Below, one piece after another: positions 439 to 32,054 of a stretch of 35,961 nucleotides of DNA. The notes beneath the pieces are model-generated. The model had not been told where the DNA came from. It saw nothing but the letters and a program-made list of their open reading frames with translations, and did not search any database. This DNA comes from a virus: IMG/VR virus record IMGVR_UViG_3300046328_000070, positions 1-35,961 of that record, one strand, 5' to 3'. Made by a program: the position numbers and the translations under genes. How positions within the stretch are numbered: the stretch's first letter is position 1; every line of letters begins with the position of its first letter.

Positions 439-956
439 TAATCGATATCAGGAAAGTCATCAGTTAGTGTGGCTAAGCTAGCTACTCCTGGTTCTTGCAC
501 TTGGCTTTTCCCGAACACGTAGTCTTCGAACACTTTGGCTGTTGCCAGAACATCATCGAGCTTAATAGACTTTGCACCCACTGATAAAACGTTAACGGCT
601 GTACTGAGAGATGACTGACGAATGATGTAGACTTGACGGGCAGCTCTTTCTTCAGGCGTTTCGTAGGTTGATCTTGGGCTGGCTGTTGCTCCTGTTTTGC
701 TACCTTGGCTGCTCGAACTAGACCCTTCGCTCTTTGTGGCTTCTGTGAATTCCCAGTAACCTTTGTCGTTTTTGTTGAGTTTGACATCAAATACTTCTCC
801 TTTACTTGCTGCTGATAATGTTGCATATAACGCTTTGTTACCAAAGCTAACTACGTTTTTCTTTTCACTGCGACCTTCTTGATTGAGGTACTCAACAACT
901 GCAATTTTATACTTACCTTTGTCTTGTACATCTACATTATTGATTGTGATTTGCAT
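438..956 (-). CDS. probable phage ssDNA-binding protein
   Basis: This 172-residue protein has a beta-rich N-terminal half (about 1-75) that could be an OB fold. A Ser/Gly-rich linker follows, then a conserved-looking helical segment (YETPEERAARQVYIIRQ) and an acidic aromatic tail (DDFPDID). Such tails are how bacterial and phage SSBs contact replication partners. It sits between the polymerase C-terminal half and the exonuclease, which fits a replisome role. AAAGG lies upstream of the ATG, and the start overlaps the polymerase stop by 20 nt. The function is inferred from the tail and the neighbourhood; I did not recognise a canonical SSB core. Confidence 0.65.
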   Translation of the reverse strand: MQITINNVDVQDKGKYKIAVVEYLNQEGRSEKKNVVSFGNKALYATLSAASKGEVFDVKLNKNDKGYWEFTEATKSEGSSSSSQGSKTGATASPRSTYETPEERAARQVYIIRQSSLSTAVNVLSVGAKSIKLDDVLATAKVFEDYVFGKSQVQEPGVASLATLTDDFPDID

Positions 957-1698
957 GTGTTTCCTTTACTTGTTTTAGATATTGTGAGTAGTACTCTACA
1001 GAGTCGTTCATATTAGGACCGACACTGCACTCACACTTTAATGGTATGTTTGGTTTAACTCCGAACATCCTATCGAAATTATCAGGCATGTCCGCAAAGC
1101 TAGACTCAAACAAATTAATAACAGTCTCTACGTTCTCCTTGGGTACATCAACCAAGATAGAGTCATGGATCGTTCCTATTAGCTTAGCTTCAATGTTTTG
1201 CTTTTTTAAGCGGTTGAAGAACGACACTCGTATTACTGCCATTATGTCATGACCAGTACCCTGAACAGGGTGATTAGTCAATGTAGTCCAAGGTAATACT
1301 AGATCACCTCGGTAGTTACGTTTCATTTCAAAGAACCACTCACGTCCTTGTGGTCCTACAACGGGCTTCCCTGCGGCGACCAACTTTGATAAGGATAGAT
1401 GCCACTGATCTAGTCCGTTGTACTTCGTGAAGAACTTGTCTCCGATATCTTCCCAGAACCTTACTGATGAACTTGTAGAAGCGAACTCTGGATCTTTTGA
1501 AAACGCATAAGCAGAACCCCGATAAATTGTTCTGAACAAATACTTCTTTGCAATAAGGCGTGACGGTAGCCCGAATGCTTTCTCGTTTTCTAAGTGTAGA
1601 TCTTTTCCATTTTGTATCTCGTCGATACCTATCTTGTCTTGGCTTAACCATACTGCTGTCCACCATTCTAATGCTTTTGCATCTGCTTGTATTAACAT
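937..1698 (-). CDS. DNA polymerase family A, C-terminal half (palm/fingers)
   Basis: This 253-residue product (from ATG 1698) carries the catalytic half of a Pol I/T7-like polymerase. Motif A is QADAKALEWW (catalytic Asp at residue 6), motif B is the O-helix-like region with AKKYLF and TIYRGSAYAF, and motif C is TIHDSILVDVP. It lacks the exonuclease and thumb regions, which are encoded by the separate gene at 1922-3037. Motif A begins only six residues from the start, so the break is placed exactly between the thumb/primer-grip region and the palm. A GTG at 1719 could extend it by seven residues. No clear ribosome binding site precedes ATG 1698, and a sigma-70 promoter lies directly upstream, so it may be translated from a nearly leaderless message or by coupling. 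Activity requires assembly with the N-terminal half, which is inference. Confidence 0.85.
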   Translation of the reverse strand: MLIQADAKALEWWTAVWLSQDKIGIDEIQNGKDLHLENEKAFGLPSRLIAKKYLFRTIYRGSAYAFSKDPEFASTSSSVRFWEDIGDKFFTKYNGLDQWHLSLSKLVAAGKPVVGPQGREWFFEMKRNYRGDLVLPWTTLTNHPVQGTGHDIMAVIRVSFFNRLKKQNIEAKLIGTIHDSILVDVPKENVETVINLFESSFADMPDNFDRMFGVKPNIPLKCECSVGPNMNDSVEYYSQYLKQVKETHANHNQ

Positions 1699-1709
1699 AT
1701 ATATATAAT

Positions 1710-1738
1710 AGTATAACACATCACGAGGAATATGTCAA
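1710..1738 (-). promoter_or_regulatory. sigma-70 promoter upstream of polymerase C-terminal half
   Basis: On the minus strand TTGACA (1738-1733), a 17-bp spacer and TATACT (1715-1710). The -35 overlaps the stop codon of the 64-residue ORF. The expected transcription start lies only about 5 nt before ATG 1698, so the message would be nearly leaderless. Confidence 0.75.
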
Positions 1739-1929
1739 GTCCTTTTTGAAGTTAAATAACATTCTTGTTGTACTTGTTTTTCAGGATGAAATAACTTGTC
1801 ATATGTAGCTTTGTCAAACGTCATTAGTGCATCCTTAAATGTATCAGTACCTTCGAGATTAATAAAGTCACGTACTTGGGACATCACTTCATGTTCCCAG
1901 AATTCAATTGCTAGTTGCTCTTCACTCAT
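1735..1929 (-). CDS. 64-residue ORF inserted between the two polymerase halves
   Basis: A 64-codon ORF starts inside the end of the polymerase N-terminal half (8 nt overlap) with a good ribosome binding site, AAGGAG, five bases before the ATG. The product is acidic to neutral, mostly helical by eye, and matches no family I know. It shows no HNH, GIY-YIG or LAGLIDADG motif, so it is not a recognisable homing endonuclease. Its TGA stop at 1735-1737 is in the same frame as the downstream polymerase half, with HIPRD encoded just after the stop. It may be a free-standing small protein, or the remnant of an element that split the gene. Confidence 0.55.
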   Translation of the reverse strand: MSEEQLAIEFWEHEVMSQVRDFINLEGTDTFKDALMTFDKATYDKLFHPEKQVQQECYLTSKRT

Positions 1930-3037
1930 ATTGACTCCTTACATTAGTTTGTAGTTCAGGTGGCATGTTTTGTAGGTTAGGTTTGGTTGATGATAGCCGA
2001 CCTGTTGATGTGGTTACTTGATTAAACTGACCATGAATCTTGTTTGCTTTCCAGTTCATTTCATTGTTGATCTTGATAAAGCCCTCATAGAACTCATTAA
2101 CCTTTGTTAGCTGTGCTAGTTTTAATAGACCTGCGACAGTACCTGTCTTGTCTTTTAGCTTCTTAAGGACGTCTTCTGACGTGCTGAATAGCCCTTCTTT
2201 TTGTAACTCTGTACCTTCAAGCGGTTTAAATAAGCCAGGTAACGTGTGAGTTTCCCGTACCACTTTAAACCTAGGCTGTCCAATCTTCGTACCTGTTTTA
2301 TAAAGCCCTGCGATTTCCCGCCTTTCTTCTTCGATGGTACCGCCATACATGTAAGCCGATAGGTGATCCGTAGAATTAAAGTTAATAGGTACATGAGGAT
2401 ACTTACTGCTAAGATCATTGGTAATGATAGCGATCTGTTCTTTAATGTTGTCAGAGTCTGCTTTACATTTATCCAAGTCAACTGGTAACCCATTGTATTC
2501 CATCTCCTCTAGTGTGATTAAGTCCATGCATGTCAGTTGGACTAGCCGCTTTTGTAGCGGCGTCACAACTTCCTGCTGTTTGTAATACAGTTCAAGCGTC
2601 TGTTTGACATCTTGAATGTTGTATGCTGACAGGATATCCCATGGTATTTCAGTTGTATCAATACCGTTTTTCCAGTATTGTTCTTTAACTACGTCTAACT
2701 TAGCCTCAAGTCCGTACTTCTCCAGACATTTATCAAGACTAGGATACTTCATCTTCTGTCTACTAATGATAAACTCAGCTAGTTGACAGTCCCAAACACG
2801 TACATTAGACACGTCATACCCAGCACTCCTAAGCCAGTGAAGGTCAAACTTAATGTTAAAGCCAACAAGAAGGTCTGCAGACGAAATGGCTGCCTGTACT
2901 TCAGGTACATACCCATCTCCCACGCACTGCTCCGTAGTCCCATCAGTCCAAGCAACAGACACAAGCTTGTTACTAGTATCAAAGGGATTACCTTTATTAG
3001 AAATAGTACACTCGATATCAATTGAGATTACTTTCAT
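1922..3037 (-). CDS. DNA polymerase family A, N-terminal half (3'-5' exonuclease and thumb)
   Basis: This 371-residue product starts at ATG 3037, overlapping the previous stop (ATGA). All three proofreading motifs are present: Exo I SIDIEC (Asp7, Glu9), Exo II GFNIKFDLHWL and Exo III AYNIQDVKQT. The thumb region follows and ends in the family A signature GRLSSTKPNLQNMP. The reading frame stops shortly after, at NVRSQYE, where intact polymerases run on for roughly ten residues into motif A. Proofreading should be active; polymerisation needs the separate downstream half. A TTG nine bases upstream is an alternative start, but the ATGA coupling favours 3037. Confidence 0.9.
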   Translation of the reverse strand: MKVISIDIECTISNKGNPFDTSNKLVSVAWTDGTTEQCVGDGYVPEVQAAISSADLLVGFNIKFDLHWLRSAGYDVSNVRVWDCQLAEFIISRQKMKYPSLDKCLEKYGLEAKLDVVKEQYWKNGIDTTEIPWDILSAYNIQDVKQTLELYYKQQEVVTPLQKRLVQLTCMDLITLEEMEYNGLPVDLDKCKADSDNIKEQIAIITNDLSSKYPHVPINFNSTDHLSAYMYGGTIEEERREIAGLYKTGTKIGQPRFKVVRETHTLPGLFKPLEGTELQKEGLFSTSEDVLKKLKDKTGTVAGLLKLAQLTKVNEFYEGFIKINNEMNWKANKIHGQFNQVTTSTGRLSSTKPNLQNMPPELQTNVRSQYE

Positions 3038-3240: not shown

Positions 3241-3452
3241 TTCTCTCTCGCTTTCTTTAGTATTGTTCTAATCATTTCTAATATGTTATCTTCTTGAAAT
3301 GAATAAATAGAACATCTTTGTTCGCTAAAAGCATATACATATTCTAGTAGTTCATCATCACTTAACTCTCTTGGTGCGGTGTATTGATAATTTCTTTTCT
3401 TATTAAACTCAATAGCTTCTTCTAAAGTTCCTAGTTTATCTTCAGGTTTCAT
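3234..3452 (-). CDS. small hypothetical protein (72 aa)
   Basis: A predominantly helical, charged 72-residue protein (LGTLEEAIEFNKKRN, then SDDELLEYVYAF). I recognise no family. Its ATG shares a base with the helicase stop (TAATG), so it is probably translated by re-initiation after the helicase. It lies between helicase and polymerase, and a minor replication role is possible but unsupported. Confidence 0.65.
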   Translation of the reverse strand: MKPEDKLGTLEEAIEFNKKRNYQYTAPRELSDDELLEYVYAFSEQRCSIYSFQEDNILEMIRTILKKAREKC

Positions 3453-4666
3453 TATGACATGTCTTCATAGCGTGCAATTGCAGGGTTAATATGTACTTCC
3501 ATTCTACCATGACGTAGTTCTGGAATACTGTCTTCATCTCCTGTAAGTTTGTTCTTAGACAAATGTAAGAAGCGAATGTATTCAAAGCCGACATCATGTA
3601 TAGCACCGATACCCATGATCCAGTCAGCTTCCGCTTGTTTGGATGTCTTGGCATTGGCAACGTTGTTCATAGTTAACCATCGTTGATTTTCTCCCGTACC
3701 ATCAGCTTGTGTAATCCCGATAACAGGTCCATAGGTCTTAGCCATTTCCCGGGCCCATTGATAAATGGCACCGAGCCTGAGATCTTCACGGTCATTAGTA
3801 AACCCTTTGATCTTATCGATCTGGTCAAAGACGATTAGCTCAGGGTTTAATGTGGCACATAGTTTCTCTAAGTCAGCTGCGGTAGCAGACACACCATCGT
3901 AAATCTTAAGTCTACCACCGATACGTCTATGGAACTCGTCACGTGCAGCTGGAATGTCACGGAATAGTTCTATGTTAGTAAGTCCTAACAATGCTTGGTA
4001 ACAGCGTAGCATTACTTTGTTTGATTGTTCTTCGTTGTTTACCCACAGGATTGGGCGTTCAGCCTGCTCTGCCATGTGTGTAATCTCTGATGCTAGGAAC
4101 GTTGTCTTGCCCGTTTCTGGACGGGCGAATACAAAGCCGAAGTCACCTTTACGTAGTGATCCTAGAGAACGATTAAGGGCGCCTAAACGCCATCTAAGAC
4201 CTGGTTTAGCAAAGGCATCATGGTGTAACAACTCTAAGTCATCCGTTGTGAATGATAGAGGCTCGTCTTCGAGAGTCTCAACAGTGTCGAGCTGTTGTAC
4301 TAGTTTGTTAACATCCTCAATACCTTTACGTCCTTCACTTGCATCGTAAGACACAAGGGCTAACTGTGATAAGACAGTCTTTTGTTTGTATGATTTAAGT
4401 AACTGACTGATCAGTTCTGGTTTAACATCTGCATCTCGCATTGTCTCGAGGACTGCTCGATGCGTCTTATCTATCTTACCTGATGTTTCACATACAATCT
4501 CGAACTCTGGAACAGTCAAGTCTGAGTCATGTTTGATGTGATAATTATCTAAGATAGTTAATAGTGTACTTAATTCTCTTGTTAACTGTTTTACATTAAC
4601 ATACTTTCTATACTCTGCCCACGTAGGTTTTGTAAGAAGTGCTTTTAATACTTGTAATTCAATCAT
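3452..4666 (-). CDS. replicative DNA helicase (DnaB / T7 gp4 helicase-domain type)
   Basis: This 404-residue RecA-fold helicase has Walker A ARPETGKTT at about 181-189, an H1a-like acidic segment NNEEQ at 210-214 and Walker B LIVFDQIDK at 277-285. A H3-like GITQADG follows at 317-323. The N-terminal 150 residues are helical, as in DnaB-like proteins, and no primase domain is fused. The primase is the separate gene just upstream, an arrangement that splits T7 gp4 into two polypeptides. AGGAAA precedes the ATG, and a consensus sigma-70 promoter lies inside the end of the primase gene, so helicase and downstream genes can be transcribed independently. It would unwind DNA ahead of the split polymerase. 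Confidence 0.9.
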   Translation of the reverse strand: MIELQVLKALLTKPTWAEYRKYVNVKQLTRELSTLLTILDNYHIKHDSDLTVPEFEIVCETSGKIDKTHRAVLETMRDADVKPELISQLLKSYKQKTVLSQLALVSYDASEGRKGIEDVNKLVQQLDTVETLEDEPLSFTTDDLELLHHDAFAKPGLRWRLGALNRSLGSLRKGDFGFVFARPETGKTTFLASEITHMAEQAERPILWVNNEEQSNKVMLRCYQALLGLTNIELFRDIPAARDEFHRRIGGRLKIYDGVSATAADLEKLCATLNPELIVFDQIDKIKGFTNDREDLRLGAIYQWAREMAKTYGPVIGITQADGTGENQRWLTMNNVANAKTSKQAEADWIMGIGAIHDVGFEYIRFLHLSKNKLTGDEDSIPELRHGRMEVHINPAIARYEDMS

Positions 4667-4692
4667 GTAATTTCCTGTATGTATGTCTTAAT

Positions 4693-4721
4693 ATTATAAC
4701 ACAGAAACTTTAATGTGTCAA
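4693..4721 (-). promoter_or_regulatory. sigma-70 promoter upstream of helicase
   Basis: On the minus strand TTGACA (4721-4716) is followed after exactly 17 bp by TATAAT (4698-4693), a perfect consensus pair. The bases just before the -10 are TGTGT and just after are ATTAAGACATACA, resembling the other promoters in this window. It overlaps the last codons of the primase gene and points at the helicase, 27 nt away. Confidence 0.85.
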
Positions 4722-5408
4722 GAAGTATTTTATCTTTTCATCATTATATTCCTTAGGATCTAAGTTAGTGAACACTGACAAAGCAGGGAGTCCGATAGAC
4801 TTGGAACGGTTGACAATATCATGGCTGTTTTTCCATTTATCCGAATCTAGCCAGACTATAATCCCCCTGCATTGTGTCTTTAAACGCATTAAAAGGTGCG
4901 TAGAAGCCTCTGAACCGAACAGGGGCATAGCTACCCCTACCCTTCCTATCTTAATGGCACTGACGAGATCCTCGACAAGTATAATTGGATTGGTTTTTGC
5001 ACCACAAAAGTACATAACATCATGAATTTTACCTTGAGAATAGTACTTTGACTTTGCCTCAGGACTGAAGTTTCTTGCTTGCCAAGCTATCAACTTCCCG
5101 GACCCATCGTACAAAGGGAAGATTAGTTGTTGCTTAGATTTAGACCAGAGCATACGATACCGTACTCTTTCAGTTTGGGTTATGGCATACTTATCCAGCC
5201 AATCTAATGCAATTTTATCTATCTGTGCAGAAGTATCTTCAGGTAATTTAATAACCTTTGGACTATCTTCTGTTGTTTTTGGTACGTAATGGGAAGAAAA
5301 CTCCGTATAACCACAGCCAAAACAATACGCAGAACCGTCATCATATCTACCTAAGTTGTCTTTAGACCCACATTTAGGGCATGATTCATGTTTGACGAAT
5401 GTTGCCAT
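4710..5408 (-). CDS. DNA primase (Zn-binding plus TOPRIM)
   Basis: This 232-residue primase matches the primase half of T7 gp4. An N-terminal zinc ribbon has Cys10, Cys13, Cys29 and Cys32 (SCPKCGS and CFGCGY). An RNA-polymerase-like region contains LIFPLYDGSGKLIAWQARNF (about 95-113), and TOPRIM motifs are ILVEDLVSAIK (143-153) and VWLDSDK (185-191). It synthesises lagging-strand RNA primers, probably in complex with the adjacent helicase. It stops without a helicase domain, so it is a stand-alone protein. The ATG has only a distant GGGGA upstream, and its start overlaps the preceding small gene by 23 nt. Confidence 0.9.
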   Translation of the reverse strand: MATFVKHESCPKCGSKDNLGRYDDGSAYCFGCGYTEFSSHYVPKTTEDSPKVIKLPEDTSAQIDKIALDWLDKYAITQTERVRYRMLWSKSKQQLIFPLYDGSGKLIAWQARNFSPEAKSKYYSQGKIHDVMYFCGAKTNPIILVEDLVSAIKIGRVGVAMPLFGSEASTHLLMRLKTQCRGIIVWLDSDKWKNSHDIVNRSKSIGLPALSVFTNLDPKEYNDEKIKYFLTH

Positions 5409-5574
5409 CGGTTGGTGATATCCCCATAAAGTAATAACATTTATCTGCTAGTGGATCATCTTTAGGACTAGAACTAAAGTATGATTGACGATGCTCATTA
5501 GGCATAGCCATGTATCTGTAGCATTGAAATCTGGATTTGCATTGGTTATCCATACACATTGTAATGTCTGGCAT
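5386..5574 (-). CDS. small cysteine-rich phage protein (62 aa)
   Basis: From ATG 5574 this is a 62-residue protein with Cys7, Cys12, Cys18 and Cys44 and the stretch RYMAMPNEHRQSYF. It resembles a small protein seen in many phages, with Cys pairs that could bind zinc. The start is chosen because GGAGGA lies upstream and the ATG overlaps the previous stop (TAATG); a longer frame upstream has no support. Function unknown. Confidence 0.7.
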   Translation of the reverse strand: MPDITMCMDNQCKSRFQCYRYMAMPNEHRQSYFSSSPKDDPLADKCYYFMGISPTDGNIRQT

Positions 5575-5849
5575 TAGTATCGTCCTCCTTTGACACGGTA
5601 AGGGAATCTTGTTTCTTTCATAAAACAAAACTCTTCACCGTTTTTAGTTACTCTAAATGCTTCCCAGTTAGAACCGGTATCACATTTGATATGCATTAAG
5701 TTTGAGTATGCATCACTTCCCCACACCCCTATCAGTAGGCCTAGGATGAAGGCTGGTACAGTCATCCGGTTGATAAGCGTGTCCACAACAAGGCGGGATT
5801 TGTTTGTTAATTGGGTTGTCAACGATTTGACGTAATCTGGCAATTTCAT
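5574..5849 (-). CDS. small single-span membrane protein (91 aa)
   Basis: This 91-residue product has a basic N-terminal region, one membrane span (VPAFILGLLIGVWG) and a C-terminal domain with two Cys. GAAGG sits five bases before ATG 5849; a GTG six bases further up is possible. It overlaps the upstream 78-residue gene by 137 nt in another frame, which is unusual for this phage. The topology (short N-terminus, one span, small soluble domain) would suit an inner-membrane factor such as a superinfection or lysis accessory protein, but nothing specific identifies it. Confidence 0.6.
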   Translation of the reverse strand: MKLPDYVKSLTTQLTNKSRLVVDTLINRMTVPAFILGLLIGVWGSDAYSNLMHIKCDTGSNWEAFRVTKNGEEFCFMKETRFPYRVKGGRY

Positions 5850-5949
5850 TGGCACCTTCTTTAAGTAAGTTACGAGTTACATAGTAATCGTCTTGATTAG
5901 CATAAGCTAACATACGATCATGAATATCACCAATGAATGTTGATGTCAT
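5713..5949 (-). CDS. small hypothetical protein (78 aa), overlaps next gene
   Basis: A 78-residue ORF preceded by AAGGA. The N-terminal half is a plausible helical protein (EGANEIARLRQIVD) like small phage proteins with an EI-RLR repeat. The C-terminal 35 residues are Pro/Cys-rich and lie in the 137 nt shared with the membrane-protein gene in a different frame. Either both frames are used or the true protein ends earlier in relatives. Function unknown. Confidence 0.5.
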   Translation of the reverse strand: MTSTFIGDIHDRMLAYANQDDYYVTRNLLKEGANEIARLRQIVDNPINKQIPPCCGHAYQPDDCTSLHPRPTDRGVGK

Positions 5950-6013
5950 TCTTGTGATCCTTTTTGAATTGCATATAGGCTACGGCAATAATTGCCCCGA
6001 ATAATAATAACAT
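5927..6013 (-). CDS. putative 28-residue membrane microprotein
   Basis: ATG at 6013 overlaps the stop of the 87-residue gene (TAATG) and opens a 28-codon frame. It encodes a hydrophobic segment (LLLFGAIIAVAYM) followed by a basic, polar tail (FKKDHKND). This is the typical form of a phage membrane microprotein. Support is coupling and composition only; there is no strong ribosome binding site. Confidence 0.45.
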   Translation of the reverse strand: MLLLFGAIIAVAYMQFKKDHKNDINIHW

Positions 6014-6276
6014 TAGTTAGTTCTTTCTGATAGTGTCCATTCTACTAATCCATCTCTAATTACTGATGGATGATTGTTACGAATCCATGCTAATACGTCA
6101 AGTCCTGCATTTCTAGGTTTGTATTTAACACGAGTTACATGGCATGGATGAATATAACCTACATCTTCTAGATGTAATAATCTATTAGACATTGAGTATC
6201 CAGTAACTCTGTGATTATTATTGTTGTAATTAACATAACAATGCATGGGAAATAGTGCTTGTGTTTTAGTGGACAT
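6013..6276 (-). CDS. small hypothetical protein (87 aa)
   Basis: An 87-residue protein rich in Asn/His with a short strand-rich core (HRVTGYSMSNRLLHLEDVGYIHPCHVTRV). It resembles small SH3-like beta-barrel proteins in spacing but is not assignable. It overlaps the upstream 40-residue gene by 11 nt. The ribosome binding site is weak, consistent with coupled translation. Confidence 0.6.
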   Translation of the reverse strand: MSTKTQALFPMHCYVNYNNNNHRVTGYSMSNRLLHLEDVGYIHPCHVTRVKYKPRNAGLDVLAWIRNNHPSVIRDGLVEWTLSERTN

Positions 6277-6388
6277 GATTTGTAATAGGTGCAGGGAATG
6301 TTAACTTACGCATAACTTTAGGTTTGATTGTATTACCTAATGCAGCACCTAAACGGCTGTCTTGTTTATTCTTCGATTTCGTCTTCAT
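6266..6388 (-). CDS. basic microprotein (40 aa)
   Basis: A 40-codon frame from ATG 6388 with GAGG six bases upstream. The product is strongly basic (MKTKSKNKQ, then IKPKVMRKL) and may bind nucleic acid. It overlaps the Zn-binding protein gene upstream and the 87-residue gene downstream, continuing the chain of coupled genes. Function unknown. Confidence 0.5.
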   Translation of the reverse strand: MKTKSKNKQDSRLGAALGNTIKPKVMRKLTFPAPITNHVH

Positions 6389-6545
6389 AGCCATCCTCTA
6401 ATAAGTCCTTTCGTTCAATAACATCAATGTCATTTGCAATAGTGCTATAGCATTTGTTGCACATATCAATGTACTCACCGGTGTTTACACCTTTGCGAGT
6501 TGCTTCGAAGTCAGTTAGTACACAATTACAGGCGACACATCTCAT
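6366..6545 (-). CDS. small Zn-finger-like protein (59 aa)
   Basis: A 59-residue protein starting at ATG 6545, overlapping the H-protein-like gene stop (ATGA). Cys3, Cys6 and Cys8, then Cys29 and Cys32 (CVAC ... CNKC), form a likely zinc ribbon. An acidic C-terminal tail follows (EDGYEDEIEE). Coupling to the last gene of the amidoligase cassette suggests co-expression. It could bridge proteins or nucleic acid; no function is assigned. Confidence 0.65.
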   Translation of the reverse strand: MRCVACNCVLTDFEATRKGVNTGEYIDMCNKCYSTIANDIDVIERKDLLEDGYEDEIEE

Positions 6546-6832
6546 GCAATCTCCGCATAGAATAATGGTTTGGTTGAATCTAATTCATCAGGACGTTCTA
6601 AAGCATCGCCGTTAAAGCTGATACGTTTGACTGTGAATGGTAGTTTGAGAGAACCTAATGAGTCAGTACCTTCTACTGCTATAATAGGATCTCCAGCTAC
6701 ATAGTTACGTTTACGGTCATTGACTGGAATGATTGACCATAGTTGACCAAAGATGTCAAAGGCTGTATCTGTTAAGCCAATAACAGAAGTACCGTCGTCT
6801 TTGGTTTGTTTCCAGAATAGATCAGCGTCCAT
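6542..6832 (-). CDS. H-protein (GcvH)-like carrier domain lacking the lipoyl lysine
   Basis: This 96-residue protein aligns by eye along most of its length with the glycine cleavage H protein. [20 protein letters not shown] (17-36) matches the H-protein segment [30 protein letters not shown] (46-55) matches AGDDCAVAES, and [11 protein letters not shown] (74-84) matches NDALSDSPEL, followed by a final PLFYAEI. At the site where H protein carries the lipoylated lysine (ESVK), this protein has EGTD, so Asp57 replaces Lys; Lys63 is the nearest lysine. It overlaps the ATP-grasp ligase gene by 11 nt. I infer it is a repurposed swinging-arm or carrier domain that serves as substrate or scaffold for the neighbouring ligases. 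Remote similarity only, with no search run. Confidence 0.65.
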   Translation of the reverse strand: [96 protein letters not shown]

Positions 6833-7613
6833 AAGCTAATTCCTTAATTTTAGTTGAGTAACTGGTTAATGTAGAACCTTCTAGGCCTGGTGCTGTGTTA
6901 ACTTCTAATGCATAGCATTTATCATAATGCTGATTATAGATGACATCGACAGCACCGAAGTCTAGACCTAAGCTTGTTACAGCTTGAATTGCGACATCTC
7001 GTAGATCGGATGGTTCGATAATGTCATCACGACAAAATACGAAGCCGTTAGCGTGATTGCGAATAAGGAAACCAGCGTCAGACCCCATAGCCCTACGTTT
7101 TTCTTGAATGTCGATAACTTCGTTATTAAATACATGAACACGGAATTCTTTCTTTTTCTTTATGTACTTTGTATATAATGGTGCAGATACAAGCTCATCT
7201 GGATTACTAGCAATAACAATACCATTGCCAGAATGTGCTTGAACTCTGGTGCGACAAAAGACTGTAGAACCTTCCTCAAGCCAAGATAGAGCAGTAAAGT
7301 AATCCGTAGTCCACTCTGGACAAGACACGCCATCATCAGACCAGTAATTGAAAGTACGTAGTTTGTTAGAAGCAAGACCAACTGCGTCAGGCTTGTTAAT
7401 AATAGTACAATCTGGGTCATCTAAAAAGCTTTCACTTGAACCCCAGTTAACTACAACTCGGGTTGGTTTAAGTAAATGAATACGACTAGCGTTAACACAT
7501 AAGACTGTTAATCGGAGCTCCTGGGAAAGGGAACTCTGTAATGACTGGGCTGAGCGACTGCCCGGTTTGTACTTGAGTATTGCTATTTTTGAAGTTGGGT
7601 GTTGTTTTCTCAT
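6822..7613 (-). CDS. ATP-grasp amide/peptide ligase (RimK-like)
   Basis: This 263-residue protein has ATP-grasp features: a glycine-rich nucleotide loop (RVQAHSGNGIVIA), the YTKYIKKKKEFRVHVF region that contacts ATP, and a C-terminal metal-binding stretch (ALEVNTAPGLEGSTL). The family joins a carboxylate, through an acyl-phosphate, to an amine. The N-terminal segment (KIAILKYKPGSRSAQSLQSS, then VVVNWGSS) resembles other phage ATP-grasp proteins, so the long start at 7613 is preferred. This overlaps the class II amidotransferase by 122 nt in another frame. No ATG lies near the end of that overlap. Its 3' end overlaps the H-protein-like gene, which may encode its substrate. Confidence 0.85.
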   Translation of the reverse strand: MRKQHPTSKIAILKYKPGSRSAQSLQSSLSQELRLTVLCVNASRIHLLKPTRVVVNWGSSESFLDDPDCTIINKPDAVGLASNKLRTFNYWSDDGVSCPEWTTDYFTALSWLEEGSTVFCRTRVQAHSGNGIVIASNPDELVSAPLYTKYIKKKKEFRVHVFNNEVIDIQEKRRAMGSDAGFLIRNHANGFVFCRDDIIEPSDLRDVAIQAVTSLGLDFGAVDVIYNQHYDKCYALEVNTAPGLEGSTLTSYSTKIKELAYGR

Positions 7614-8835
7614 TAAGGGCTTCCATTACGCAATCGCTACATACTACACGATAATTATTAGAATTGCCACGAAGTTTAACACTGGTTAGTGTAGTTTCAT
7701 GACGTAGGATTCTTGAGTTACATTTGTCACAGGTACAATGATCGACAACGTAATTCCAAGTGGCTGTTGGTATTTTAGTATTATAAACTTGCGTATGCTC
7801 TGCATCTTCAATACTATCTAGATTGTAGCTTTCACCACAATTGCTAGACCATTTACTACTTACATAACCTTGCATGTATGGTTGTTTTAAGATGCGAGGC
7901 ATGTCATCTAATGTATATTCAGCACACATAAGACCAGTGAAATCCATATTAGGAATATGTGATAGTAATTTACCACGTACTCTGATACGGTTAGCAGCTG
8001 TCTTAGGTATGAGAACTTCGTCAACTTTGATTAGGACTTTAGTGCCTCTAGCAATATCCGCCGTAGGATTCCCACCACTTTTCTTCTGCGGATAAGTCGG
8101 AGCCGTAATACCTCGACTGTAGTAAGTGGTTACTGACTTTGGGCGGAAGATCTCGAAGTCTTCCTCTTCCTTGTTACCTTTAGCATCGAATGAGATAAGC
8201 TTACCAACAGGGAATGTTTCTGGTTTGCCATATGTACCTGTCTTACGACCAAGCACATACTCTAGCAATCCACTTTCGGATGCGAAGTAGATGTTGGTTG
8301 ACGTTTCAACAAATGACAAAGGACGTTCCGAGTTGCGGGCAATGAAGAGTTTTTGTTGTTCTCTGTCGTACCAGACGAATGCGAAGGCACCGTCGATTTC
8401 TTTGAGGACATCCTTGGCTGGGCGTTCATTAAGAGCATGGGTAATTGCATGACTATCTACCTCCACATCTTTGTTAAAGTCTTTATGATTGTGCAATGTA
8501 CCATTATGTACAAGAACAATCTTACCTTCACTGAATGGATGAGCATTTGTAGTATTAACAGCACCACGAGTAGCGGAGCGATTGTGACCTACTACAAGTT
8601 GCATTGATGATTGAGCTTTGGTGCGGAACTCTGCCCACTCAGGACATCTGAATAGCATGTGCGGTTCAGCTGCAACTTTGAGAGTACGGGCTTGACGGTT
8701 TTTGTAGACACCGAATACACCAGTACTATCTTCGCCACGAAGACTGTCACACACAAGCATATTCTCGAATAACTCTAGGTCGTTATAGTACAAACCACCT
8801 GAAGTTTTAGAGACAATACCTACGATACCACACAT
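7492..8835 (-). CDS. class II (Ntn-type) glutamine amidotransferase with C-terminal Zn-ribbon
   Basis: This 447-residue protein begins MCGIVGIVS, so Cys2 becomes the N-terminal nucleophile after Met removal. Class II motifs follow: LRGEDSTGV (32-40), GHNRSATRG (83-91), LVHNGTLHN (108-116), GAFAFVWYD (149-157) and ARNSERPL. It should hydrolyse glutamine to release ammonia for a partner enzyme. The C-terminal part (about 200-447) is not a synthetase or SIS domain. It carries a Cys cluster (CTCDKC ... CSDC) likely to bind zinc. Ammonia acceptors are probably the adjacent ligases. Start overlaps the amidoligase stop (TAATG); its end overlaps the ATP-grasp gene. Confidence 0.9.
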   Translation of the reverse strand: MCGIVGIVSKTSGGLYYNDLELFENMLVCDSLRGEDSTGVFGVYKNRQARTLKVAAEPHMLFRCPEWAEFRTKAQSSMQLVVGHNRSATRGAVNTTNAHPFSEGKIVLVHNGTLHNHKDFNKDVEVDSHAITHALNERPAKDVLKEIDGAFAFVWYDREQQKLFIARNSERPLSFVETSTNIYFASESGLLEYVLGRKTGTYGKPETFPVGKLISFDAKGNKEEEDFEIFRPKSVTTYYSRGITAPTYPQKKSGGNPTADIARGTKVLIKVDEVLIPKTAANRIRVRGKLLSHIPNMDFTGLMCAEYTLDDMPRILKQPYMQGYVSSKWSSNCGESYNLDSIEDAEHTQVYNTKIPTATWNYVVDHCTCDKCNSRILRHETTLTSVKLRGNSNNYRVVCSDCVMEALNEKTTPNFKNSNTQVQTGQSLSPVITEFPFPGAPINSLMC

Positions 8836-9686
8836 TAGAATACTCCTTTACTGTAATCAAAACGAGTCATGAACAGCTTGCTAACTGCAAGATCTTCACG
8901 CATCGTCTTGGTATATGTGCCATTGTTACTTAACTTATTGAATCTTTCACCAAATACAAGATAACCTAGATGTAGGTAGTCACGTGTTTGACTGCATTCA
9001 CGTATGAGACTTTCTAATTCATCAGTGGTATGACTTGTAGCAAAGTTCCAAATAGCATATAAATAATGTAACCACTCAAATAGGACAGTACGATTGTTAG
9101 TACCACGTAGATGACGGAACTCGATAGTACCATAGCTACCCATAGGACTAAGGTTGAGACCTGTATACTTACTCCATGGAATGTTACAATCTGCACGACC
9201 TACAAAATGTCTACGAGTATTTACGTAGTAGTTAGTACTACCTAGTGGTACACAGAAGATAGATTTCTTACGTTCTGGACCAGCAAACTTATATAACAAG
9301 TCTTCGAAGCATTGATATAGAATAACAATGTTGTAGATTTGTGATAACTCTAGCTCACGAACATTCATATGTACATGGATAGATGTACGAGGACTGAAGT
9401 GAGCACTGCTTGGTAAGTTGTCGAATAGATGATTAACAGCAGACTCTACAAGTTTTGGAGGTGTAGGTAAGCTAATAAACTCTAGACCTGAGTTACGTAA
9501 TGAACCGTCAGTATGTACAGACCATGAATGATCTAGACGTACATTGTCTCTGACATTCTCTACTTCTACTTCGATACCGATAGTTGGGTTATTGTAACGA
9601 CTAAAGCCTTGAGTATCATCTAATGCTGGTAGGTTAGCATTATTAATATTAAGCTTTTTGAATGATACTAATTCATTTAATCTCAT
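8835..9686 (-). CDS. amidoligase (Amidoligase_2-type, glutamine-synthetase fold)
   Basis: This 283-residue enzyme has the amidoligase motifs IGIEVEVE (36-43, metal-binding acids), HTDGSLRNSGLEFIS (58-72), RTSIHVHMNV (100-109), KYTGLNL (173-179) and YGTIEFRHLRGT (185-196). Members of this family form amide bonds using ATP through gamma-glutamyl-phosphate-like chemistry. It lies between a second, distinct COOH-NH2 ligase and a glutamine amidotransferase. The start is placed at ATG 9686, six bases after GAGG; a GTG directly before it is possible. Its substrate is unknown; a small metabolite, a peptide, cell-wall or a carrier protein are all possible. Confidence 0.88.
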   Translation of the reverse strand: MRLNELVSFKKLNINNANLPALDDTQGFSRYNNPTIGIEVEVENVRDNVRLDHSWSVHTDGSLRNSGLEFISLPTPPKLVESAVNHLFDNLPSSAHFSPRTSIHVHMNVRELELSQIYNIVILYQCFEDLLYKFAGPERKKSIFCVPLGSTNYYVNTRRHFVGRADCNIPWSKYTGLNLSPMGSYGTIEFRHLRGTNNRTVLFEWLHYLYAIWNFATSHTTDELESLIRECSQTRDYLHLGYLVFGERFNKLSNNGTYTKTMREDLAVSKLFMTRFDYSKGVF

Positions 9687-10272
9687 CACGAACCTCAGTT
9701 AAGAAATCAGGAGCATCAATAGAGCCGTCAGCTTTTACAGTACCAACAGGTAATAGTCGATAGAATAACACGATTACATCTTTACGAGCATTGGCAATAC
9801 AGAAATTGCGACTAAGAGCTACAGATCTGTAACCTTGTTTAAGCAAGTCTAAGCCTTCGTATAGTGTATGGAACTTAGGATTGAAAGCACTACGGATACT
9901 AGTGAAATCAAACTTGGTACCTGAGTTTTCTAATAACATAAACTGTGTTAATGGGTTGTTAAAGATGCTGTTGTTATGGTGAATGCCACGTTTCCACTGG
10001 CGTTCTGCCATACGTCTAAAGAATACAGCATGTTTGCCTTGTTGAATATATGTTGCAGTCGGTACTTTGAACAAGATCCTAGCAGTTGTGTTGTAGTTAA
10101 GCAACACAGTGCCTAGCTTATCAGATGACAACTCGAGTTTTGGAAACTTACTACCATCATTGACAGTACGGATAAGTCTGAATAACTCTGGTTGTTTGTC
10201 TTCGAAAGCTACTTGCACATAACTGCCTTGATACTTGCGGTCAAAGTCCTCAAATATCTGATTGATGTTCAT
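9673..10272 (-). CDS. conserved-looking unknown protein in amidoligase cassette (199 aa)
   Basis: A 199-residue soluble protein, basic and rich in aromatic residues, with regular alternation of strands and helices. I recognise no catalytic motif. It is locked between the two glutamine-synthetase-fold ligases: its ATG overlaps the COOH-NH2 ligase stop and its stop overlaps the amidoligase start. That position suggests it is a subunit, substrate-binding protein or third enzyme of the same pathway. Motifs such as QGKHAVFFRRMAERQWKRG could bind phosphate or nucleic acid. Function unknown. Confidence 0.75.
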   Translation of the reverse strand: MNINQIFEDFDRKYQGSYVQVAFEDKQPELFRLIRTVNDGSKFPKLELSSDKLGTVLLNYNTTARILFKVPTATYIQQGKHAVFFRRMAERQWKRGIHHNNSIFNNPLTQFMLLENSGTKFDFTSIRSAFNPKFHTLYEGLDLLKQGYRSVALSRNFCIANARKDVIVLFYRLLPVGTVKADGSIDAPDFLTEVRDEIK

Positions 10273-11036
10273 AGAGAAGCTGCCCAGTGTTCAATGTCAT
10301 TGATTAATGAAGCATCTGATTTGTTGATACATTGTTGGATTAAAGCACCAAGGTCATCAGGGATAGATTTACCAGCACGAACAAACTCTACAGCTTTTTG
10401 TGATTGGTTGAATGCCCAACGTTTTGTATCGTCAGATTGTAACCAAGCATTGGATGCTGTGCGATACTCGATGCCATATGATTTAGGACGGAAAGCACCA
10501 GCTTTGCCATATAACTCACGACGTCGAGCATCGGTGTCAAAGCTAAGCATTGGAACACCAACGAATAAGTCCATAGCTTTGGTTAATTCTAGTTTATCTA
10601 GTTCAGGGGCTTCAATATGGATATGACCTCCGGCAGACCGTAAAGCTTTATTACGGCTCCGAGGCCTAGGATTAGCAGAGCCATAGTCCCAAGCGTTGAA
10701 ATCGGGATCGCATCCAAAAGTAAGAGCCCCAGCTGTCGTAAGTTGATCTTTGTCAAATTCAGCAGAAGGAGTGAATACCACAGATAGACCCAACTCGCTA
10801 GCACGACGACTAATCCAATCAAGATTATAGTTAATAGCATTGACGAATTCCTCAGCATTATTAGTTGGAGGGGTATTGAATTCAACAGTTACGTTGTCTT
10901 CTTGAACAGAACAACCATTGCCGATAGGCATTGGCTCATCTTTAGAACCACCGATAAGGCCGACCGAAGAGATATACTTGCCAGCGGCATCACGTAAAAA
11001 AGTCTCTGGGTCAGAACCGATACGAACTAAACTCAT
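10269..11036 (-). CDS. phage COOH-NH2 ligase (phiEco32-like type 2)
   Basis: This 255-residue protein carries the signature of the phage COOH.NH2 ligase type 2 family, named from phage phiEco32 and having a glutamine-synthetase fold. Motifs are RIGSDPETFL (5-14), GLIGGSKDEP (26-35), VQEDNVTVEFNTPP (44-57), FGCDPDFNAW (107-116), RSAGGHIHIE (133-142) and RRELYGKAGAFRPKSYGIEYR (172-192). The acidic and His residues would bind Mg-ATP. It forms an amide between a carboxylate and an amine; the substrates are not known. It belongs to the same coupled cassette as the Amidoligase_2 enzyme and both glutamine amidotransferases. Confidence 0.92.
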   Translation of the reverse strand: MSLVRIGSDPETFLRDAAGKYISSVGLIGGSKDEPMPIGNGCSVQEDNVTVEFNTPPTNNAEEFVNAINYNLDWISRRASELGLSVVFTPSAEFDKDQLTTAGALTFGCDPDFNAWDYGSANPRPRSRNKALRSAGGHIHIEAPELDKLELTKAMDLFVGVPMLSFDTDARRRELYGKAGAFRPKSYGIEYRTASNAWLQSDDTKRWAFNQSQKAVEFVRAGKSIPDDLGALIQQCINKSDASLINDIEHWAASL

Positions 11037-11039
11037 AAT

Positions 11040-11609
11040 TTACTCCCTAAAAGGATTTACTGCTTGATAAACGTCACATTGATTATCTGAGTTTTTATTG
11101 ATAAAACTAGATAGTAATGTGGGCTTTAGAACTTTAATTAATTCTACAATTAGATTATGATAATCGTAATTATTTTCTATACCTACAGGTTTGTCATAAT
11201 ACTCATCATCATCTTCGTCATATTCTTCATCGTAGATTACAGACTTAACAGCTACGAATTGAATGTTAGGTTTCCACCAACCTTCGGTATTTCTAAAGAA
11301 TTGATTAAGTGCTTCTGTGAAACCGTCGGCAAATTCGTCAATAGATTGAAACCTATGTAAGATACTAATACCACAGCATTCTGGATATTGTGAAGACTTG
11401 AAGCTACATTGATAATTATCATTATGGAATATTACATAGTCTGTAACAGCATATACATTACCTACATAGTCTACTTTACGTTCGAATGAGAATCCATTAC
11501 CAATATCAAAAGTATTAGGATCACGTTTAGGAGGTTCGTTAACTTGATTAAGAGTTTGACGTAAGTCCCATGCTTCTAGGCTTTCACTAGCTTCTATGCT
11601 ATTTGTCAT
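11040..11609 (-). CDS. unknown protein in amidoligase cassette (189 aa)
   Basis: From ATG 11609, with GGAG upstream, this is a 189-residue acidic protein with a low-complexity Asp/Glu/Tyr stretch near residues 133-144 (DEEYDEDDDEYYD). An N-terminal strand-rich domain includes SFERKVDYVGNVYAVTDYVIF and QYPECCGISILHRF. I do not recognise a family. It overlaps the class I amidotransferase gene by 11 nt and precedes the COOH-NH2 ligase by 3 nt. It is probably a dedicated member of the pathway, for instance an acceptor or adaptor. The longer frame upstream lacks support. Confidence 0.7.
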   Translation of the reverse strand: MTNSIEASESLEAWDLRQTLNQVNEPPKRDPNTFDIGNGFSFERKVDYVGNVYAVTDYVIFHNDNYQCSFKSSQYPECCGISILHRFQSIDEFADGFTEALNQFFRNTEGWWKPNIQFVAVKSVIYDEEYDEDDDEYYDKPVGIENNYDYHNLIVELIKVLKPTLLSSFINKNSDNQCDVYQAVNPFRE

Positions 11610-12222
11610 GGAGTTTCTCCTTGATTTTAGAAATAGTAAAGTCAATCTCACCTTTGCTTGCATACCATTCAGGATGCCATTGAAAAGCAAGTGCTTTGAT
11701 TTTAGGGAAGTAGACAGCTTCTGGTTCTACTTGATGTTTGTCCATGTTGATACCATAACCACGATAACAGTCACTGAACTTGTCTGTTGACCATGCTAGC
11801 ATATCATGTTCTACATCCCACGGGTACATTTGTTGGTGATGTACGGAAGATACATTAAAGATCTTACCATCATTAGTAACAACAGGATGTGAACCACCAT
11901 GATTGTTTACGTGTTGCACCAAACGACCGCCAGCCAATGCACAAGCGAGTTGAGCCCCACGGCATATGCCAATAATAAGAGCACCTTTAGAGATTGCATC
12001 ATTGATTGCCTCACGTTCTATAATATCTCTACGACTAGGAGTATCAGCAACATGGCTGTCTGTATTAGGGTTATTATAGAGTGATGGATGGATATCAGCA
12101 CCGCCCTCAATAACGATTGCGTCATATTCTAGATTCGGAGACCAACGTTCTATTTTAGTAAATAAGGCTGCAATTTCGTCGGCAATTCCCGTACCCATTG
12201 GCACAGTAGCTAATGTTGTCAT
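11599..12222 (-). CDS. class I glutamine amidotransferase / gamma-glutamyl hydrolase-like (peptidase C26)
   Basis: This 207-residue protein has a class I amidotransferase fold of the PuuD / C26 peptidase type. Key elements are VIEGGADIHPSLY (37-49), the nucleophile elbow GICRGAQ (85-91, Cys87) and the His-Glu pair FQWHPEW (180-186, His183 and Glu185). C26 members cleave gamma-glutamyl bonds or supply ammonia. In this cassette it could trim gamma-glutamyl adducts made by the ligases, or recycle them. It is slightly shorter than bacterial PuuD (about 250 residues). Start overlaps the upstream gene; its stop overlaps the next. Confidence 0.88.
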   Translation of the reverse strand: MTTLATVPMGTGIADEIAALFTKIERWSPNLEYDAIVIEGGADIHPSLYNNPNTDSHVADTPSRRDIIEREAINDAISKGALIIGICRGAQLACALAGGRLVQHVNNHGGSHPVVTNDGKIFNVSSVHHQQMYPWDVEHDMLAWSTDKFSDCYRGYGINMDKHQVEPEAVYFPKIKALAFQWHPEWYASKGEIDFTISKIKEKLHDK

Positions 12223-31543: not shown

Positions 31544-31767
31544 GTTATACTCCTTCCTATAAAAAAGGGGATTGGATTGCAATGTGTGATGTCTGTGGAC
31601 GAAAGTACAAGGCATCATTACTTGCTCAGCGATGGGACGGCCTTATGTGCTGTACCCAAGACTGGGAGCCAAGACAACCTCAAGACTTTGTAAGAGGACA
31701 GACTGATATCATGAAAACACCATGGTCTCGTCCAGAGCCTGACGATACTTTTATTGATGTTGAATAA
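31540..31767 (+). CDS. Zn-ribbon-like small phage protein (75 aa)
   Basis: A 75-residue protein with CDVCG (Cys16, Cys19) and a Cys37-Cys38 pair within LMCCTQDWEPRQPQDFVRG. Similar small Cys proteins are common in podovirus tail regions. It could bind zinc. It ends just before the promoter at 31773. Confidence 0.7.
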   Translation: MSYTPSYKKGDWIAMCDVCGRKYKASLLAQRWDGLMCCTQDWEPRQPQDFVRGQTDIMKTPWSRPEPDDTFIDVE

Positions 31768-31772
31768 AAAGC

Positions 31773-31801
31773 TTGACAACTTATCAATAATATGGTATAA
31801 T
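31773..31801 (+). promoter_or_regulatory. sigma-70 promoter for lysis/tail operon
   Basis: TTGACA (31773-31778), a 17-bp spacer ending TATGG, and TATAAT (31796-31801), all consensus. ATTAATATATACA follows, nearly the same as at 16566. It precedes the holin-like gene by about 25 bp. Confidence 0.9.
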
Positions 31802-31825
31802 ATTAATATATACACAGGAATTTAA

Positions 31826-32053
31826 ATGACAATAGAAGCCCTTGAACATCGTGTTGTTCGCCTAGAGGTTAAGACAGACAATCATGAAGAAGACATTAAG
31901 GAGCTTCGTGACTCTCACTTAGATCTAAAGGCAACGATGCATAGTATTGAGAAATCATTAAATCAGATTAAGTACTTAGCAATGGGTGCCTTAGCTGTAG
32001 TAGTAGCCCAGACTATAGGTCTGGATAAAGCAATTAAACTTATATTAGGATAG
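31826..32053 (+). CDS. XhlA / holin-like protein (75 aa)
   Basis: A 75-residue protein: a coiled coil (EALEHRVVRLEVKTDNHEEDIKELRDSHLDLKATMHSIEKSL) followed by a single C-terminal membrane span (YLAMGALAVVVAQTIG). This matches the layout of haemolysin XhlA-type proteins, often paired with holins. It probably acts at the inner membrane at the end of infection. A dedicated promoter lies directly upstream. No endolysin is seen in the window. Confidence 0.7.
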   Translation: MTIEALEHRVVRLEVKTDNHEEDIKELRDSHLDLKATMHSIEKSLNQIKYLAMGALAVVVAQTIGLDKAIKLILG

Positions 32054-32054
32054 T

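What the first reader, a model, noticed from the sequence alone, without database searches (positions are those of the whole stretch)
937..3037. Family A DNA polymerase split into two genes exactly before motif A
Exonuclease and thumb (371 residues) are separated from palm/fingers (253 residues). Both have intact catalytic motifs. The break falls between the GRLSST...NVRS region and QADAKALEW, where group I introns or inteins would hit a highly conserved stretch. Both halves lack stray stops, which suggests they are functional and reassemble as a two-subunit enzyme.
Basis: partly seen in the sequence, partly recalled or inferred. Interest (0 to 1): 0.75.

Follow-up and report, generated by a model that had tools for sequence, protein, structure and literature searches.

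The report
Phage DNA polymerase made in two pieces
This virus of bacteria encodes its DNA-copying enzyme as two separate proteins, cut cleanly in a surface turn beside the active site; the same cut in over 150 related virus sequences, never re-joined, suggests a genuine two-part enzyme rather than a gene mended by splicing.

Summary
On the minus strand a 371-aa chain (3'-5' exonuclease, thumb, first palm strand; 3037-1922) and a 253-aa chain (rest of palm, fingers, motifs A/B/C; 1698-937) together make one family A DNA polymerase. Only a 2-4 residue turn is missing: the break lies in the turn of the beta-hairpin before motif A. About 157 non-identical junctions in isolates and contigs show the same break. 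The halves lie from 17-base out-of-frame overlaps, through a bare stop+ATG, to 3.6 kb apart, and a targeted scan found no fused gene. Both halves are under strong purifying selection. So this is an inherited gene split, not an intron, recoding or assembly error; group I introns in relatives lie at other sites of the gene and are recognised there. The split was published for phages MEP401/402 (PMC10580990), where an intron was suggested. New here: evidence against the intron, the structural site, an independent second split (ICP2/VP41), and, in this subclade, a near-perfect sigma-70 promoter 11 bases before the catalytic half's ATG without a ribosome-binding site, implying a nearly leaderless separate mRNA. 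Assembly of the two chains is inferred, not shown.

The parts
1922..3037 (-). N half of family A DNA polymerase: 3'-5' exonuclease, thumb, first palm segment with GRLSSxxPNLQN motif (371 aa)
   Evidence: start ATGA overlaps the stop of the upstream ORF
1735..1929 (-). 64-aa small helical ORF between the halves; Shine-Dalgarno AAGGAG; overlaps the end of the N half by 8 bases
   Evidence: conserved in close relatives, pN well below pS, AF2 three helices pLDDT 80; function unknown
1710..1738 (-). sigma-70-type promoter TTGACA-17-TATACT with extended -10 TG; its -35 overlaps the stop codon of the small ORF
   Evidence: one of only five sites with at most 1 mismatch in the window (1.6 expected); equivalent site in L011, L013, L014, L016-L019, L039
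937..1698 (-). C half of family A DNA polymerase: palm from motif A, fingers, motifs B and C (253 aa); no Shine-Dalgarno, ATG 11 bases after the -10 element
3452..4666 (-). DnaB-like replicative helicase, upstream gene of the replication operon (context)
   Evidence: preceded by a perfect sigma-70 promoter 4721-4693 (-)
4710..5408 (-). DNA primase (context)
   Evidence: phrog_47 4.6e-28

Best explanation
A phage replicative DNA polymerase of family A has been permanently split into two genes. The break lies in the turn of the palm beta-hairpin formed by the strand ending ...(V/F)xSRY and the strand carrying motif A, so each chain keeps whole secondary-structure elements: the N chain carries proofreading and the thumb, the C chain carries the polymerase centre. 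Most likely the two chains dock non-covalently by completing the palm sheet, and polymerase activity needs both. Shown: the anatomy, the exact site, its conservation, absence of any fused form in the family as sampled, purifying selection on both chains, and variable spacing. Inferred: docking, activity, and that in this window's subclade the C chain is transcribed from its own host-type promoter as a nearly leaderless mRNA, separately from the helicase/N-half operon.
For: Divided Pfam match and intact motifs. Same site in all family members: 159 non-identical split junctions in total (two of them the ICP2/VP41 type at another site); the 8 fused genes in the set are distant outgroups fetched on purpose. 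A scan built to find fused genes returned no fused one. Spacing from -17 through -1 (TAATG), 0 (stop then ATG) to 592, and 3598 bases with seven annotated genes between. Alignment places the break in the DGG/GDDG turn of unsplit relatives. AF2 model of relative L058, its single separating stop read as Gly: pLDDT 91.6, junction in a loop between strands, best PDB match Klenow fragment E 3e-26. dN/dS 0.06-0.11 for both halves wherever synonymous sites are not saturated. In the tree the split rows lie on one side of one branch. Promoter and missing SD. Split B-family gp43A/43B of Aeromonas phage 25 co-purify and are active (PMC2988022).
Against: No protein, RNA or complex data. Two-chain docking could not be modelled; the AF2 model is a read-through of a relative, which tethers the halves artificially. 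A BFVD polymerase of 674 aa matches the model over its full length at 35% identity (A0A6J5TAY8), so unsplit relatives exist not far outside, or possibly within, the family. The leaderless reading rests on sequence only, and some close relatives lack the promoter (L015, L020, L021).
Confidence: 0.88

Rival explanations
1. The halves are exons and the interval is a self-splicing (group I-like) intron, as suggested for MEP401/402.
For: Group I introns are common in phage family A polymerase genes (PMC11878797); some relatives do carry one, at motif B (L057, Rfam E 1e-9; L173 by anatomy) and probably at GRLSSSKP| (L181, E 0.05). PMC10580990 suggests it.
Against: Gaps of 0, -1, -7, -11 and -17 in many relatives leave no room for an intron; one relative has seven genes between; all frames occur; the 223-base interval is largely filled by an SD-led, conserved ORF plus a promoter; no group I match in the window gap although SPO1's intron is found in the same mode (E 4e-4).
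Confidence: 0.03
2. A single fused protein is made by recoding (stop read-through or frameshifting).
For: Several relatives have only a stop codon between the halves in the same frame (L058, L060, L117, L130).
Against: In the window the two halves are in different frames (starts 1339 bases apart) and 223 bases apart; relative frame and distance vary freely among relatives; nearly every C half starts with a start codon at the same alignment column.
Confidence: 0.02
3. The gene is a decaying pseudogene or the break is an assembly error.
For: One relative's N half carries an internal stop (L016) and MW202697's C half seems to have a one-base shift.
Against: Identical split in isolates and about 157 non-identical junctions; dN/dS about 0.1 for both halves; all catalytic residues kept.
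Confidence: 0.03
4. The two chains no longer work together: the N chain is a free 3'-5' exonuclease and the C chain a separate polymerase.
For: Separate promoter for the C half in this subclade; halves 3.6 kb apart in one relative.
Against: The N chain still carries thumb and the conserved GRLSSxxPNLQN palm segment, which has no role in a free exonuclease, and these are among its most conserved residues.
Confidence: 0.04

Closest known systems
MEP401/MEP402-type split DNA polymerase (Methylophilales phages, Zobellviridae; PMC10580990)
   Same: Same two halves at the same site with a small ORF between; 44-45% identity in the N half, about 41% in the C half
   Different: Window has a small ORF without detectable homology to theirs and an internal promoter without SD before the C half; the paper leaves open an intron, which the spacing data argue against
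Split gene 43 (43A/43B) of T4-related Aeromonas phages 25 and 44RR (PMC2988022)
   Same: Replicative phage polymerase encoded by two genes; for phage 25 the two products co-purify and polymerise
   Different: B-family enzyme, different break, seg homing endonuclease or untranslated spacer between
Vibrio phages ICP2 and VP41s3 polymerase
   Same: Family A polymerase split in the same 30-residue stretch, genes in the same operon
   Different: Break about 13 residues earlier (QN[IL]SN | MSD[VI]K[KR]C), HNH endonuclease between in ICP2 (phrog_2081, 5e-41); VP41s3 lies outside the split clade, so an independent event
HMO-2011-type DNA polymerase
   Same: Related replication module and alignable polymerase
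   Different: One chain, with a DnaJ-type zinc domain inserted between exonuclease and polymerase; no split
SPO1/Bastille polymerase with group I intron
   Same: Interruption in the stretch before motif A (GRLSSNEP| in SPO1)
   Different: Real ribozyme intron, some 25-30 residues upstream of the break studied here

Membership tests
Family A DNA polymerase | Motifs A, B, C and the palm/fingers/thumb fold | tested here: met
   model of relative L058 matches Klenow
Family A DNA polymerase | 3'-5' exonuclease DxE, NxxxD, YxxxD motifs | tested here: met
   D7/E9, D65, Y139/D143 invariant in A1; PF01612 match
MEP401-type split DNA polymerase | Break between the SRY strand and M[LI]xxADAKALEW, N half then C half on one strand | tested here: met
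MEP401-type split DNA polymerase | Common descent of the split forms | tested here: met
   split rows on one side of one branch; the branch itself has 37/92 support, the set of unsplit rows plus VP41 96/87; one origin is not rejected rather than proven
MEP401-type split DNA polymerase | Same small ORF between the halves as in MEP401/402 | tested here: not met
   profile-profile E 0.07, within reversed controls
Group I intron-interrupted polymerase gene | Group I core in the interval | tested here: not met
   none; positive controls found
Group I intron-interrupted polymerase gene | Exons joined in the RNA | not testable with these tools
   needs RNA data
Split intein (trans-splicing) | Intein N and C domains at the chain ends | tested here: not met
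   The N chain ends within about 4 residues of the break strand and the C chain starts at motif A; no room for intein domains
Homing-endonuclease split (as in T4-type gp43, ICP2) | Homing endonuclease gene in the interval | tested here: not met
   64-aa ORF has no Pfam/PHROG nuclease match; relatives L063 and ICP2 do have HNH genes there
Two-subunit enzyme | Physical association and joint activity of the chains | not testable with these tools
   no multimer prediction or assay available

The most novel reading that the evidence does not exclude
An obligately two-subunit family A replicative polymerase, cut inside the palm, in which re-fusion is selected against across a whole phage lineage; in the window's subclade the catalytic subunit is dosed separately from the proofreading subunit through its own leaderless mRNA, so that the ratio of polymerase to exonuclease chain can change during infection.
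Probability: 0.3. Interest if true: 0.75.

Novelty: new variant of a known kind. Interest (0 to 1): 0.55.

Why it matters
It offers a natural split of a Klenow-like polymerase at a site that tolerates cutting within the palm, next to the catalytic aspartate. That is useful for asking how a polymerase active site can be assembled from two chains, and as a starting point for split-polymerase tools. It also corrects a published suggestion that the interval is an intron, and shows one 30-residue stretch interrupted several separate times in phages: SPO1's intron, the ICP2/VP41 split, and this split.

Tried and rejected
Nucleotide-level relatives in the phage collection: none. Rfam at gathering threshold turned out uninformative, because it also missed SPO1's known intron; only the E-value mode was used for the argument. 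Homology of the window's 64-aa ORF to the small ORF of the MEP branch: not supported (G1 vs G2-G5 E 0.02-0.07, as in reversed controls), while G2, G4 and G5 are each linked to G3 (E 2e-6 to 3e-4). Fold search with the 64-aa model: nothing significant. Bacterial genomes: only two contigs of one MAG, so no host inference. The idea that residues are missing at the break was rejected by alignment. L004 (MW202697) was left out of the tree because of an apparent one-base shift in motif A, L016 because of an internal stop.

Full report
What is there. The window is a virus record of 35,961 bases from a tailed phage with a replication module on the minus strand and a structural module (terminase, portal, major head protein, head closure) on the plus strand. 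The replication module reads primase (5408-4710), DnaB-like helicase (4666-3452), two small ORFs, polymerase N half (3037-1922), a 64-aa ORF (1929-1735), polymerase C half (1698-937), a 172-aa ORF (956-438). The N half has the 3'-5' exonuclease motifs and the thumb and ends ...GRLSSTKPNLQNMPPELQTNVRSQYE*; the C half starts MLIQADAKALEW at motif A and keeps motifs B and C. Pfam DNA_pol_A covers profile positions 42-141 in the first and 153-379 in the second.

Nothing is missing. In unsplit relatives the stretch reads, for example, KKVFVSRF-DGG-KVMEADFAQLEFR (HMO-2011) or KKLFISRFGDDGQIIQSDFSSLEIY (phiKT). In the split family it reads TLFLSRYGETT* and MILNADAKALEW (MEP402), or TNVRSQYE* and MLIQADAKALEW (window). 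The break is in the turn of the hairpin, and the initiator Met takes the first position of the motif-A strand. An AF2 model of relative L058, whose halves are separated by one stop codon only (read as Gly so that one chain could be folded), gives pLDDT 91.6, a loop at residues 375-379 between a short strand and the motif-A strand (380-387), and Klenow/Bst polymerase I as closest solved structures. This shows where the break lies in the fold; it does not show docking of two separate chains.

It is conserved. Isolates MEP401, MEP402, Alcaligenes phage QDWS535 and two assembled genomes from Manatee Spring have the same arrangement. Contig searches bring the total to 159 non-identical split junctions, of which ICP2 and VP41s3 are split at another site; the 8 fused genes in the set are distant outgroups fetched on purpose. 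Non-identical junctions are not independent species, and a few of the longest gaps also contain introns. A DNA-pattern scan designed to catch fused genes (QN, 54-84 bases, DAK..LEW) returned only split family members or chance matches. A tree of 53 polymerases puts the 41 split rows on one side of one branch; support for that branch itself is modest (37/92), for the set of all unsplit rows but one plus VP41 it is 96/87, and long branches make the deep order unsure.

It is not an intron. The distance between the halves is -17, -11, -7, -4, -1 (TAATG), 0 (stop directly followed by ATG), 3, 4, 8, and up to 592 bases, and 3,598 bases with seven annotated genes between in MW202796. All relative frames occur. 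In the window the two halves are in different frames. The small ORF has its own Shine-Dalgarno (AAGGAG) and overlaps the N half's stop. Real introns in the same gene look different: in L057 the coding sequence breaks off inside motif B (RLIAKIFLFR|) and resumes after an HNH-encoding group I intron (Rfam E 1e-9), L173 shows the same anatomy, and L181 has a weaker group I match at GRLSSSKP|. SPO1's intron is found in the same search mode (E 4e-4); the window gap gives nothing. The authors of the MEP401 paper reported the split and thought an intron possible (PMC10580990); these data argue against that.

A second, independent split. In Vibrio phages ICP2 and VP41s3 the break is about 13 residues earlier, QN[IL]SN | MSD[VI]K[KR]C, and in ICP2 an HNH endonuclease gene (phrog_2081, E 5e-41) fills the gap, which the record annotates as a join. 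VP41s3 groups with unsplit Vibrio and Autographiviridae polymerases (100/99), and Vibrio phages K380 and 526E57-1 in that group are unsplit. HNH genes also sit in the gap of some members of the present family (L063). Invasion by a homing endonuclease is therefore a plausible origin of the split, as for T4-type genes (PMC2988022); for the present family this is inference.

Function. Both halves evolve under strong constraint (dN/dS 0.06-0.11 in comparisons with L011, L012, L015, L018 and L021 where synonymous sites are not saturated). The N half keeps the GRLSSxxPNLQN palm segment among its most conserved residues, which makes sense only if it completes the polymerase. For split gp43 of Aeromonas phage 25 the two chains co-purify and polymerise (PMC2988022). 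The most likely mechanism is non-covalent reassembly across the palm sheet. Why the split is never repaired is open: separate dosing, or termini that have adapted to being free, are both possible.

Expression in this subclade. Directly before the C half lies TTGACA-17-TATACT with an extended -10, 11 bases from the ATG, and no Shine-Dalgarno. In the whole window only three sites (4721-, 16537+, 31773+) are better, all perfect; sites with at most one mismatch occur five times against 1.6 expected in first-order Markov sequences. The three perfect sites share TATAATATTA and the site before the C half has TATACTATTA. Close relatives L011, L013, L014, L016-L019 have the equivalent promoter 8-11 bases before the ATG, L039 16 bases, L012 a degenerate one; L015, L020, L021 have none. 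A start about 7 bases after the -10 (general knowledge of sigma-70 promoters) would give a leader of 2-5 bases. This is a sequence-based inference.

The small ORF. The window type (G1) is conserved in its subclade and predicted to be three helices. In the MEP branch another set of small ORFs (G2-G5), linked through G3, recurs at the same place. G1 and G2-G5 cannot be shown to be related. Some members have no ORF there at all, so it cannot be essential to joining the halves in general.

Verdict. A true, heritable gene split giving a presumptive two-chain family A polymerase. The split as such is published for MEP401/402; the argument against the intron, the structural site, the breadth, the independent second split and the separate promoter are additions.

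Noticed in passing
window 6822-12222 (-): Cluster of amide-bond and glutamine enzymes: RimK-like ATP-grasp (6822-7613), class II glutamine amidotransferase (7492-8835), amidoligase (8835-9689), COOH.NH2 ligase (10269-11036), second glutamine amidotransferase (11599-12222); a possible phage peptide or surface-modification pathway.
   Followed up: no
window 4721-4693 (-), 16537 (+), 31773 (+): Three perfect TTGACA-17-TATAAT promoters, all followed by ATTA; with the site at 1738 (-) they look like a shared promoter class read by the host RNA polymerase.
   Followed up: partly
window 31544-32054: About 500 bases without a long ORF that contain one of the perfect promoters (31773+); possible small genes or RNA.
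   Followed up: no
L057:4827-5544 and L173:2800-3520: HNH-encoding insertions inside motif B of the C half in relatives of this polymerase; L057 is a group I intron by Rfam (E 1e-9), L173 by anatomy only.
   Followed up: partly
L181:2290-3280: Insertion encoding a probable homing endonuclease at GRLSSSKP|, the same site as SPO1's polymerase intron; weak group I match.
   Followed up: partly
L008 (ICP2, HQ641346) 4456-7024: Polymerase annotated as a join across an HNH endonuclease gene; the downstream part has its own ATG (MSDIKRC) at the same place as VP41s3, so the join annotation may be wrong.
   Followed up: partly
L004 (MW202697) about 3990-4030: Apparent one-base shift in motif A of the C half, so the annotated C half is truncated to 182 aa; possibly a sequencing error.
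   Followed up: no
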